Positions 7,035 through 21,515 of a stretch of DNA of 62,654 bases are shown here, in pieces (the first letter of the stretch is position 1; every line of letters starts with the position of its first letter). A program made the translations under genes and the position numbers. Source of the DNA: Clostridia bacterium (GTDB lineage: Bacteria; Bacillota; DSM-521; Neomoorellales; SLTJ01); the NCBI GenBank assembly GCA_024653205.1, contig JANLFO010000013.1, positions 1-62,654 of the forward strand, written 5' to 3'. Under the pieces are notes generated by a model, which saw nothing but the letters and a program-made list of their open reading frames with translations, was not told the DNA's origin and made no database searches.

Positions 7035-8273
7035 GTGGAAGCAGGCGCAGCCTATCAGGAGGCCGTAGCCAGCGGTCGTTACGCCAGGCCTACCGGCCTC
7101 CTGGGAAAATACGACAACGTGCGGCTGTACTGGGAGGACTGGGTCACTGCTTATTTTATCACTCCCTTTCTGGAGGAGCTCGTGGCCGACAGGAAGCGCC
7201 GCGGGAGGGGCCTCAGTATCCTCGACCTGGGTTGCGGTAGCGGGGACGGTTACGAACTGCTCGCCAAACTGCCGGCCAGCCGGGTAGCGTGGGAAGACCA
7301 CTGCCCCTCCCTCCTCGGACCGGAGGCCATCGGTTACTACCTAGGCATTGACCTGAACGAGGAACTCCTGGCGGAAGGCCGAGCCTCATACGGCGTACCC
7401 GGGAAGGTGGAATTTGCTCGAGCCAACTTCTGCGAGGGATTGCCCTCCGGGCCGGGCGGCCGCGGATTTGACCTTTATTTCACCTCCTACGGTACTCTCT
7501 CTCATTGTGATGACGCCGAACTGGAACAATTACTGGTGAACATCGCCGCCCAGGCGCCGCCGGGGGCAATTGTGGTGGGCGACTGGCTCGGCCGCTACTC
7601 CTACGAGTGGCAGAGCCTCTGGACCCACGAGGTGGAACAGGTACCCACCATAAACTACGTCATCTCCTACCTGGCTCCTGATGCCAACCGGGAAAAGCAG
7701 CCGTACACTTCCTTCCCGCTCCGGCTGATGAGCCGGCCGGAGGTAACCCGGGTGGTAGAGCGGGCCGGCAAAAGGGGCCACGCCGGGCTGCGCATACTCA
7801 GCTTCTTTGATCGTTCGGTGTTTGTCGGCCGGCACATGGACACCCGGCAGTACAATGCTTACGCCCTTCCCCTCCGACGGGCGGTAAACTCTCTGCTGGA
7901 ACCGGGGGTGCGGACTGATCTCGCGACCCTGAAGCTGGAATGCCATCCCCGGGAGGGCTTCCCGGATCAGAACCGGGTCCTGGCCGGGATGGCCGATAAC
8001 TGGAACCGCCTGGTGGATTTGGCCGCGGCCCTGTTGGGTGCCCTGGAGGCCGGAGCAGACCCCAAGGGGACGGAGCTGCCGGCAGGGGTTCCGGCCCCCC
8101 TGGCAGAGGGGCTGGTGGCTGCGGCCCGGGCGGCGGAGAGGCTGGCCCCCGATGCCAGGGCCTGGTGTTTTGAGCGCCAACTGGCGCTGGCTTTGCGCGG
8201 TTTGGAGATTGAGGGTCAGGTGGGTGAAGGCCTGGGCCACGGCCTGGTGGCCATCCTGCGGGTAGAAAAGTAG
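7035..8273 (+). CDS. Class I SAM-dependent methyltransferase with an extra C-terminal domain
   Basis: The N-terminal half is a Rossmann methyltransferase: motif I ILDLGCGSGDGYELL near residue 60, an acidic motif II at YYLGIDLNEELL, and FDLYFTSYGTLSHCDD as motif IV. The C-terminal part (about residues 280-412), helical and rich in Ala and Leu, was not recognised. GTG 7035 is favoured because AAAGAGG (7020-7026) lies 8 bases upstream; GTG 7026 is in frame but overlaps that site. The gene lies inside the corrinoid methyltransferase cluster and 25 bases before the second mttB-like gene, so translation of the two is probably linked. It may make the methylated amine that the MttB proteins demethylate. 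That role is inference and the acceptor is unknown. Confidence 0.85.
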   Translation: MEAGAAYQEAVASGRYARPTGLLGKYDNVRLYWEDWVTAYFITPFLEELVADRKRRGRGLSILDLGCGSGDGYELLAKLPASRVAWEDHCPSLLGPEAIGYYLGIDLNEELLAEGRASYGVPGKVEFARANFCEGLPSGPGGRGFDLYFTSYGTLSHCDDAELEQLLVNIAAQAPPGAIVVGDWLGRYSYEWQSLWTHEVEQVPTINYVISYLAPDANREKQPYTSFPLRLMSRPEVTRVVERAGKRGHAGLRILSFFDRSVFVGRHMDTRQYNAYALPLRRAVNSLLEPGVRTDLATLKLECHPREGFPDQNRVLAGMADNWNRLVDLAAALLGALEAGADPKGTELPAGVPAPLAEGLVAAARAAERLAPDARAWCFERQLALALRGLEIEGQVGEGLGHGLVAILRVEK

Positions 8274-16076: not shown

Positions 16077-16433
16077 TCACCGAAACAGCCAGGACGCCAG
16101 AGCCACGGCTACCCCGACCACGGCCACGATGGTCCCGATTATCCAGCGGGTGGTGTTGTGCAACTCCTGGTGGAGGCCATCAATTTTGGCATCTACTTCC
16201 CGGTGTAAACCGTCAATTTTGGCGTCCATTTCCTGTCGTAACCCGTCGATTTTGGCATCCAGCTTATCAATCTTGGTGTCAATCTTTTCGTTAAGCTTCT
16301 CTAGCTTGTCGTCTAGCTTGCCCAACTGCTGCATGATCATGTTAAAAGGGTCAAAGGAGGTGCGGAAGGTGAATCCCTGCTCCTCGCTGCCCGCAGCCAT
16401 TTGCTTTCTGCTTTCGTCCTCGACCACAGCCAA
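16077..16433 (-). CDS. Small coiled-coil, C-terminally membrane-anchored protein
   Basis: The 118-residue product contains a central coiled coil (about residues 40-95) built from 11-residue units (KLDAKIDGLRQ / EMDAKIDGLHR / EVDAKIDGLHQ) and a single C-terminal TM helix (IIGTIVAVVGVAVALASWLF) with a two-residue tail. TTG 16433 follows GGGAGGGGAGG closely. Similar tail-anchored hendecad proteins are common in Firmicutes and phages without a known role. Its upstream side abuts the truncated IS256 transposase, so it may have lost its original promoter. The repeat units could allow slippage changes in length. Confidence 0.75.
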   Translation of the reverse strand: MAVVEDESRKQMAAGSEEQGFTFRTSFDPFNMIMQQLGKLDDKLEKLNEKIDTKIDKLDAKIDGLRQEMDAKIDGLHREVDAKIDGLHQELHNTTRWIIGTIVAVVGVAVALASWLFR

Positions 16434-16459
16434 GCCGCCTCCCCTCCCTTGCCCATATT

Positions 16460-16747
16460 CTACCACGTTTGCGGGAATTGGGGCAATATACCTTTGGTTA
16501 ACAAACTGGCCTGAGGCACCTCCAGGACCAGCCGGCCAATGCGGGTGGTGAGCGGCTTCTCCCGGTGGCCGTTACGGTACCCTTGCCTCTGGTCCGTGCG
16601 CTCGTAAGGTCTAGCTTTGAGATGCTCGGTGACTTGCACCTCAAGGATCTGGTTCAAAACCTGCTCCACCAGCCGGGCCAGACCATCGTCCCGGGAAAAC
16701 AAGTGTTGCAGCACGTCGTCATCTACGGTAACCTGGTAATGGGCCAT
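16460..16747 (-). pseudogene. Truncated IS256-family transposase (N-terminal fragment)
   Basis: The reading frame begins at ATG 16747 with a good ribosome site (GGGAGGGATGAAGG). It matches the start of IS256 transposases (LARLVEQVLNQILEVQ, then YERTDQRQGYRNGHREK and LTTRIGRLVLEVPQ). After about 80 residues it runs into unrelated sequence (ASLLTKGILPQFPQTW) and stops. The DDE catalytic domain is missing, so it is inactive. Confidence 0.8.
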
Positions 16748-19598: not shown

Positions 19599-21515
19599 CT
19601 ACGAGTAGTCCACCGCCATACCCCGCCCCAGGCCGAACAGGCGACAAACGGCCACGGCTAGGCGCACCGGCCAGGGCGCCAGCTGCCGCTTCAGCTCCAG
19701 CCTTTCCTCCTGCAGCTGGGCCAGCAGACGCTGCAGTTCCTGGTTGGCGACCAGCGCGCCCTGCAGGCGCTTTTCCGTTTCGGCCAGCTTCTGCTTCAGG
19801 GCCGCCTGTTCCGCCTGCGTGCGGCTGAGGTTCTTGTTGAAGGAGCCCTGGAGCTGCAGCACCCGATTCTCCAGCTGTTCCACCCGGCCTTCCAAGGCCT
19901 CCTTCTCCGCCTGCAGCCGGTTGATCTCCTCCTCGGCCTGGGCCAACTGCCCCCGCATTTGCTCCCGGCGCCGCATGACTCTCTCCATTTCCGCCCGGAT
20001 TTCCGCTTTTTCCTGTTCCAACTCCTGACAGCGGGCCTGTGCTTCTTCCAGTTCCGCCTCCAGTTCCTCCGCCCGCCGCCGCCAGGTCTCCAGTTCCGCC
20101 TCCAGGTCCCGCTTTACCACCGCCAGCGCCCGGGCCTGCTCCCGGCTGGCCGCCACCTCCCGGCGCTGCTGTTCCAGCTCTTCCCGGGCCTGACGCACCT
20201 GGTCGTTCAACCGGTCGTAGGCCTGCTTCATGGTTTGGTTGAAGTACCAGGTACCGGGAGAAATCTCGTCGAAGAAGGGAAACGCCGCCAGAGTGGCCAC
20301 AACCTTGCCCGCGGCCTCCGGCCGGAGCACCTCTACCAGGCGTAGCAGCGTGTCCTCGGCCAGGCCCTCGGAGAACAGGGTAAGGATTTCCTCCAGCAGC
20401 CTTTCCAACGGCCAGGTGGCCAGATCTTCCTGCTCCCTCAGGGCGGCCACCTGTTCGGCCCTCTTGGCCTCGGCGTATACTTCCGGCTCACGCTCTCCGG
20501 TGGACCGGAGCTGGAACCGGGGCTCGTCTCCCTCGGTGACCCTTCTCAGCTCCAGTTTGCTTCCCGGTACCAGCTCCTGGCTTTCAAACCAGGAGCCCAG
20601 CCCCATCAAGACCTGGGCCTCCCGAAAATACCACACCGGGAGAGGGCCCGAGGGCGTGGCCAGCTTCAGAAAGGCCACCCCGGGCAGGTGGGCGAACATG
20701 CGCTCCAGGCGCTTTACCACCCGGAGGATGCCCAACCGGAGGTCACGGGAAGAGAGAATATAGCGCCGGAGATTGGGGTCGGTGTCCTGGAACGTGAGCA
20801 TGAGCTCCGCCCCCTGAAGGGCGCTGCTTTCCCCTTCCCACAGGAAGTCCAGCGGATCCTCCTCGCCGGGAAAATCCGGCCGGGGCACGCGCGAGCGCAG
20901 CCACCACAGGTTTCCCCCGACCCATGTGAACCTCTGGTCCTCCTCCAGGCATTGCAAGAGGTTGGTCTCCCGCCATCCCACGCCCAGGACCTCGGCGCTG
21001 ATCTGTTCCAGGGTAGGGGGTTCGGCGGCCGCCTCCATGAGCTTGATTATGTGCTCCAGCTCTTTGGACTCGACCGCCCTGACCACCTCCCACGGCACCA
21101 GGAGCCAGCGCCCTCCCTTCAGGCGCAGAAAGCGACCGTCCCGGACCAGCTGCCGCTCCTCCCGGATTTCCTCGCGCCGCTGGCGGGCCAGGTGCTCGTT
21201 CAGTTCACCCAGGCGCAGGGGACGCCCCTCCTTCTTCAGCACCTGGTAGGCGGCGTCGTTCTCTCGCCGGCCCTCGAGGTTCAGCGACCATAGGCCGCCC
21301 TCTACTTCCCGGAAGGCCGGATTCTTCTGCAGGCAGCGCCGCACGTCCTTCTCCAGCCGCGCCGGAGTGGAACGCAGGCCGAGGTGCTGACGGGCGGCCG
21401 GCAGCAACTCGGTTACGCTGCGAGGCTCACACTGAAACAAAAGCTGCTTGAGTACATCGGTAAGAGAGTCCAAACGCCCGGTGACTCGCGGTAGGCCTGA
21501 AGCCGCCTTCTTCAA
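19599..21515 (-). CDS. Large winged-helix (HARE-HTH-like) and coiled-coil protein of unknown function
   Basis: The 638-residue protein starts at TTG 21515. The N-terminal third looks like consecutive winged-helix units, each ending in a similar wing: FREVEGGLWSL (about residue 70), FLRLKGGRWLL (about 130) and FTWVGGNLWWL (about 200). These resemble the HARE-HTH fold of RNA polymerase delta. A middle region without a known motif (about 210-440) is followed by a long charged coiled coil (about 440-605) and a hydrophobic C-terminal stretch (PWPVRLAVAVCRLFGLG). It stands alone between ubiX and an unusual non-coding region. It could bridge DNA or RNA polymerase to a membrane; that is speculation. 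Confidence 0.8.
   Translation of the reverse strand: MKKAASGLPRVTGRLDSLTDVLKQLLFQCEPRSVTELLPAARQHLGLRSTPARLEKDVRRCLQKNPAFREVEGGLWSLNLEGRRENDAAYQVLKKEGRPLRLGELNEHLARQRREEIREERQLVRDGRFLRLKGGRWLLVPWEVVRAVESKELEHIIKLMEAAAEPPTLEQISAEVLGVGWRETNLLQCLEEDQRFTWVGGNLWWLRSRVPRPDFPGEEDPLDFLWEGESSALQGAELMLTFQDTDPNLRRYILSSRDLRLGILRVVKRLERMFAHLPGVAFLKLATPSGPLPVWYFREAQVLMGLGSWFESQELVPGSKLELRRVTEGDEPRFQLRSTGEREPEVYAEAKRAEQVAALREQEDLATWPLERLLEEILTLFSEGLAEDTLLRLVEVLRPEAAGKVVATLAAFPFFDEISPGTWYFNQTMKQAYDRLNDQVRQAREELEQQRREVAASREQARALAVVKRDLEAELETWRRRAEELEAELEEAQARCQELEQEKAEIRAEMERVMRRREQMRGQLAQAEEEINRLQAEKEALEGRVEQLENRVLQLQGSFNKNLSRTQAEQAALKQKLAETEKRLQGALVANQELQRLLAQLQEERLELKRQLAPWPVRLAVAVCRLFGLGRGMAVDYS

What the first reader, a model, noticed from the sequence alone, without database searches (positions are those of the whole stretch)
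19599..21515. Membrane-associable winged-helix repeat protein with long coiled coil
Three similar wing motifs (EGGLWSL, KGGRWLL, GGNLWWL) suggest repeated HARE-type winged helices, known in RNA polymerase delta and in restriction/chromatin proteins. Here they are joined to a 165-residue coiled coil and a hydrophobic end. I do not know a named protein of this build.
Basis: partly seen in the sequence, partly recalled or inferred. Interest (0 to 1): 0.6.

Follow-up and report, generated by a model that had tools for sequence, protein, structure and literature searches.

The report
Conserved four-winged-helix, coiled-coil protein
[quoted passage not shown] in our sample it occurs only in genomes that lack the ordinary delta subunit, so it may be a membrane-linked partner of transcription or of the chromosome.

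Summary
The 638-aa ORF (19599-21515, minus strand) is an intact gene under purifying selection. WH2 and WH3 are HARE-HTH/RNA polymerase delta-type (profile-profile 97% and 96%). No curated family names the whole protein.

It is a single-copy core gene of its order (21 of 22 genomes) and occurs in 49 of 398 sampled genomes of the phylum, in 16 families. The SLTD-type N-terminus, WH1-WH2, coil and tail are shared; the middle varies. It never co-occurs with canonical delta (104 genomes; overlap 0, 12.8 expected), although phylogeny contributes. It is not delta: it lacks the acidic tail, the pyrG neighbour and delta's RNAP-contacting WYP segment (0 of 37 against 7 of 7).

Best reading: a dimeric nucleic-acid- or RNAP-binding factor on a stalk, peripherally anchored at the membrane; delta-like docking is possible but unproven. 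A new architecture built from known modules; function is inferred, not shown.

The parts
19599..21515 (-). the gene, 638 aa, TTG start
   Evidence: intact ORF, single-copy orthologs in 21 of 22 genomes of the group, dN/dS ~0.14 against L006
21521..21526 (-). Shine-Dalgarno-like GGTGAG, 5 nt before the TTG start
   Evidence: sequence read
21282..21488 (-). WH1 (residues 10-78), begins with the family signature DSLTDxLKxxLF; wing EGGLWSL
   Evidence: AF2 secondary structure; profile matches to WH3 87% and WH4 87%; invariant positions
21075..21281 (-). WH2 (residues 79-147), HARE-HTH / RNAP delta-type, DGRFLRLKGGRWLLVPW
   Evidence: Pfam HARE-HTH 28.8 bits, over the cut-off; PDB profile search best hit RNAP delta 8x6g_E E=0.0017; delta profile 96.7%
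20880..21074 (-). WH3 (residues 148-212), wing GGNLWWL
   Evidence: AF2; delta profile 95.7%, WH2 94.9%
20448..20852 (-). B domain (residues 222-356), uncharacterised, mixed alpha/beta, with the family motif TGEREAEVY (TGEREPEVY here)
   Evidence: no Pfam or PDB match worth trusting; found only in this family's long form; AF2 confidence too low for fold assignment
20232..20438 (-).
   Evidence: profile match to WH1 86.9%, to the WH4 of mid-form relatives 99.0%; charge
19680..20231 (-). long coiled coil (residues 429-612)
   Evidence: period-3.5 power above all 2000 shuffles, 52% E/K/R/Q, no proline
19626..19679 (-). conserved basic hydrophobic C-terminal segment (residues 613-630), probable amphipathic membrane-contacting helix
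   Evidence: present in all 37 members scored, mean net charge +2.6, almost no acidic residues, moment peaks at 100 degrees; lowest dN of all segments

Best explanation
It is a core-genome, probably dimeric accessory protein of transcription or the nucleoid. The N-terminal tandem winged helices are the nucleic-acid- or RNA-polymerase-binding head: WH1 and WH2 are basic, and WH2 is delta-like. The B domain and the acidic WH4 are probably protein-protein modules that only some lineages carry. The ~184-residue coiled coil is a dimerising stalk of roughly 27 nm if fully extended (inferred). The conserved basic amphipathic C-terminus makes a weak peripheral contact with the membrane or a partner. 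The most likely job is to hold transcribed or otherwise engaged chromosomal DNA close to the envelope, in lineages that lack RNA polymerase delta. Shown here: domain architecture, conservation, single copy, non-overlap with canonical delta. Inferred: dimerisation, DNA or RNAP binding, membrane contact and the biological role.
For: Four related winged helices; WH2 and WH3 match delta profiles at 97% and 96%; the PDB profile search returns delta chains as its six best hits, best E=0.0017. Structural hits are to tandem winged-helix arrays and to nucleoid or forkhead DNA-binding domains (Rok 5zuz, FOXN1, SelB of Moorella), all weak with E > 0.001. WH1 and WH2 net charge +4 and +5. Single copy in all sufficiently complete genomes of the order and present in 16 families. 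Zero overlap with delta across 398 genomes, p = 1.1e-7 per genome, about 0.003-0.01 per family. Coil periodicity and a tail conserved in all 37 members scored. Noc is a precedent for a DNA-binding protein recruited to the membrane by a weak terminal amphipathic helix (PMC4331003).
Against: Delta's RNAP-crosslinked segment (Y82, P83, Y85 in B. subtilis, PMC7749165) is absent: WYP 0 of 37 against 7 of 7 in delta. There is no acidic disordered tail and no pyrG neighbour. The non-overlap with delta follows large clades, so the independent evidence is weaker than the per-genome p value. Amphipathicity of the tail is only moderate (column shuffles reach it in 7.9% of cases). Winged helices also serve as pure protein-protein modules.
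Confidence: 0.45

Rival explanations
1. [quoted passage not shown]
For: WH2 matches delta best among solved structures and the protein occurs only where canonical delta is absent. The DGRF...W....W core motif is shared in 37 of 38 members scored.
Against: WYP docking segment 0 of 37; no acidic tail (coil net charge -4); different genomic locus; more than half of the sampled genomes have neither protein, so the niche need not be filled at all.
Confidence: 0.22
2. A DNA-membrane tether acting in chromosome organisation or nucleoid occlusion without contacting RNA polymerase, functionally like Noc.
For: Basic tandem winged helices, coiled-coil stalk and basic amphipathic foot. Noc is a precedent.
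Against: No ParB/CTPase fold; coil length and head composition differ between lineages; no direct evidence for DNA or membrane binding; no conserved division or segregation partner gene.
Confidence: 0.25
3. An RNA-binding tandem winged-helix protein, like the C-terminus of SelB or Egalitarian.
For: Foldseek lists SelB (1lva, Moorella) and Egalitarian-BicD among its best matches.
Against: These matches have E > 0.001 and reflect the tandem winged-helix shape; no sequence similarity to SelB was found by profile.
Confidence: 0.08
4. A defence or modified-DNA-sensing protein, as in winged-helix restriction fusions.
For: HARE-HTH or winged-helix domains occur in such systems (PMC11037411, abstract).
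Against: No nuclease or ATPase domain, single-copy core gene, no defence-type neighbours recognised. PADLOC was not searched.
Confidence: 0.03

Closest known systems
RNA polymerase delta subunit (RpoE, TIGR04567)
   Same: WH2 and WH3 share the delta N-terminal winged-helix fold; WH2 has the DGRFxxL..G.W.L..W core motif
   Different: no acidic disordered C-terminal region, no WYP docking segment, not beside pyrG, has four winged helices and a coiled coil, below the family cut-off (26.2 against 42 bits)
HARE-HTH domain (Pfam PF05066)
   Same: WH2 is above the gathering score when scanned as a segment
   Different: no curated family found with this SLTD N-terminus, B domain, coiled coil and amphipathic tail
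Noc nucleoid occlusion protein
   Same: proposed plan of DNA-binding part plus weak terminal amphipathic helix
   Different: unrelated sequence; no ParB-type CTPase; the helix is C-terminal and beyond a long coil
249-aa delta-like WH proteins beside a pgsA-like gene (L103-L105) and alphaCTD/sigma4-like/HARE proteins (L101-L102)
   Same: delta-like winged helix, same phylum
   Different: no coiled coil or amphipathic tail; the middle of the 249-aa proteins does not match the B domain (3.8% probability)
SMC/Rad50 coiled coils
   Same: coiled-coil composition gives high-ranking but trivial hits
   Different: no ATPase head

Membership tests
HARE-HTH superfamily (PF05066) | Profile match above the gathering score | tested here: met
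   WH2 segment 28.8 against 25.9 bits; whole protein 23.3, just below
HARE-HTH superfamily (PF05066) | winged-helix fold | tested here: met
   AF2 gives winged-helix secondary structure in all three N-terminal units, pLDDT 67
RNA polymerase delta (RpoE) | TIGR04567 score over the curated cut-off | tested here: not met
   26.2 against 42 bits
RNA polymerase delta (RpoE) | RNAP-contacting segment WYP after the winged helix | tested here: not met
   0 of 37 family members, 7 of 7 delta; contact data from PMC7749165
RNA polymerase delta (RpoE) | acidic disordered C-terminal region | tested here: not met
   coil net charge -4 over 184 residues, tail +2
RNA polymerase delta (RpoE) | usual locus beside pyrG | tested here: not met
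   pyrG motif in 0 of 21 family loci, 10 of 12 delta loci
RNA polymerase delta (RpoE) | physical association with RNAP core | not testable with these tools
   needs pull-down or structure
Noc-like DNA-membrane tether | conserved terminal amphipathic helix | tested here: inconclusive
   basic hydrophobic tail in 37 of 37; moment peaks at 100 degrees, but column shuffles reach it in 7.9%
Noc-like DNA-membrane tether | sequence-specific DNA binding | not testable with these tools
   basic WH1/WH2 only

The most novel reading that the evidence does not exclude
A large set of Bacillota lineages uses, in place of the RNA polymerase delta subunit, a membrane-anchored, coiled-coil, multi-winged-helix protein, so that RNA polymerase or transcribed DNA is physically tethered to the envelope.
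Probability: 0.15. Interest if true: 0.8.

Novelty: new variant of a known kind. Interest (0 to 1): 0.5.

Why it matters
It is a conserved, single-copy, unnamed gene in lineages that include the Moorella group. Its anatomy predicts a link between transcription or chromosome and membrane, and its distribution does not overlap that of RNA polymerase delta. If it binds RNAP, it would show how bacteria without delta handle RNAP recycling, and would be a direct transcription-membrane tether. It also contains a conserved domain (222-356) that no Pfam model or PDB sequence covers.

Tried and rejected
SMC/Rad50-type hits rejected: coiled-coil composition only. PHROGs gave no match. A B3-like pseudobarrel reading of the 222-356 domain, suggested by eye, found no support in Pfam or PDB sequence searches, and the AF2 model of that part (pLDDT 53) gave no structural match of E below 0.5; left open. 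A shared middle domain with the 249-aa pgsA-linked proteins was tested and not supported (3.8%). A link to sporulation was tested with Spo0A and is uninformative. Conserved operon partners: none across all lineages; two recurrent settings only (lspA-rluD side, guaB side). An attempt to name one anonymous genome by a PDB match of a neighbour failed.

Full report
Observation. The ORF 19599-21515 on the minus strand encodes 638 aa from a TTG preceded by GGTGAG. Segment profiles from 12 long-form homologs show that the units are related to each other (WH2-WH3 94.9%, WH1-WH3 87.0%, WH1-WH4 86.9%, WH3-WH4 75.1%, WH1-WH2 53.3%), while the 222-356 domain, which serves as an internal negative control, stays at or below 4% against all WHs.

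Gene reality and constraint. Against L006, dN is 0.234 and dS about 1.64 (ratio about 0.14); the C-terminal tail, WH1 and WH2 have the lowest dN, and WH3 and the B domain the highest. In its taxonomic class 21 of 22 genomes hold exactly one copy; the exception is 58% complete.

Family and architecture. A profile of WH1-WH2 finds 49 strong single-copy members among 398 genomes sampled across the phylum, in 16 families. The shared parts are the SLTDxLK N-terminus, WH1, WH2 with DGRFxxL..G.W.L..W, a long coil, and a terminal PxVRLA..LF-type segment. The B domain is found in no other protein of 378 genomes searched and has no credible Pfam or PDB match.

Relation to delta. Pfam HARE-HTH fits WH2, and a WH1-WH2 profile search of the PDB returns RNA polymerase delta chains as its six best hits, the best at E=0.0017. 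Delta profile matches are 96.7% for WH2 and 95.7% for WH3. Canonical delta (TIGR04567 above cut-off) occurs in 104 of the same 398 genomes; none of these has this family (expected 12.8; hypergeometric 1.1e-7 by genome, 0.003-0.01 by family). Because both characters follow large clades, I treat this as suggestive of alternative solutions, not as proof of replacement. Membership in delta fails four tests: profile cut-off, WYP docking segment (0 of 37 against 7 of 7), acidic tail and pyrG neighbour (0 of 21 against 10 of 12 loci). In B. [quoted passage not shown]

Coil and tail. The coil (429-612) has period-3.5 hydrophobic power above all 2000 shuffles. The tail is not transmembrane (Kyte-Doolittle 1.37). 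It is basic (mean net charge +2.6 over 14 residues in 37 members), nearly free of acidic residues, and its hydrophobic moment peaks at 100 degrees, although column shuffles match the moment in 7.9% of trials. I therefore call it a probable, not a demonstrated, amphipathic membrane-contacting helix.

Mechanism. Taken together, a basic winged-helix head, a coiled-coil stalk and a basic amphipathic foot suggest a tether between chromosome or RNA polymerase and the membrane. Noc shows that a weak terminal amphipathic helix can recruit DNA to the membrane (PMC4331003). Whether the head binds DNA, RNAP or both is open; confidence values are given with each explanation.

Limits. The host genomes in the genome search are anonymous; structure prediction was restricted to two sequences; the literature searches made found no paper on this protein, in an open-access library only.

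Noticed in passing
L101:2318-4117 (-), L102:581-2374 (+): ~600-aa proteins with RNAP alpha-CTD-like repeats, a sigma region 4-like segment and C-terminal HARE-like winged helices (domain names by eye); another transcription-linked HARE architecture in the phylum.
   Followed up: partly
L103:966-1715 (-), L104:1524-2273 (+), L105:1606-2355 (+): 249-aa proteins beside a pgsA-like gene with a delta-like N-terminal winged helix (97% to the delta profile), an unknown middle and a second winged-helix-like C-terminus.
   Followed up: partly
L076:6270-7205 and 7172-7645 (+): The homolog in one single-contig genome is split into two overlapping frames, while its two genus mates keep an intact ORF; apparent frameshift or assembly error.
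   Followed up: no
L015 (G016): The homolog in a 1.4 Mb genome of the sister family carries one internal TAG stop.
   Followed up: no
window 16460-16747 (-) with 16077-16466 (-): A short ORF resembling the N-terminus of an IS256-type transposase (by eye) is followed directly by a small coiled-coil ORF with a C-terminal hydrophobic segment; looks like a truncated insertion element.
   Followed up: no
window 20448-20852 (-): The B domain (family motifs TGEREAEVY, LSSxDLxxGxLRxxKR) has no Pfam or PDB counterpart and may deserve a domain entry of its own.
   Followed up: partly
L058, L060, L063, L065 and the window: In these lineages the gene lies near lspA-rluD; in the mid-form lineages it usually follows guaB instead.
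   Followed up: partly
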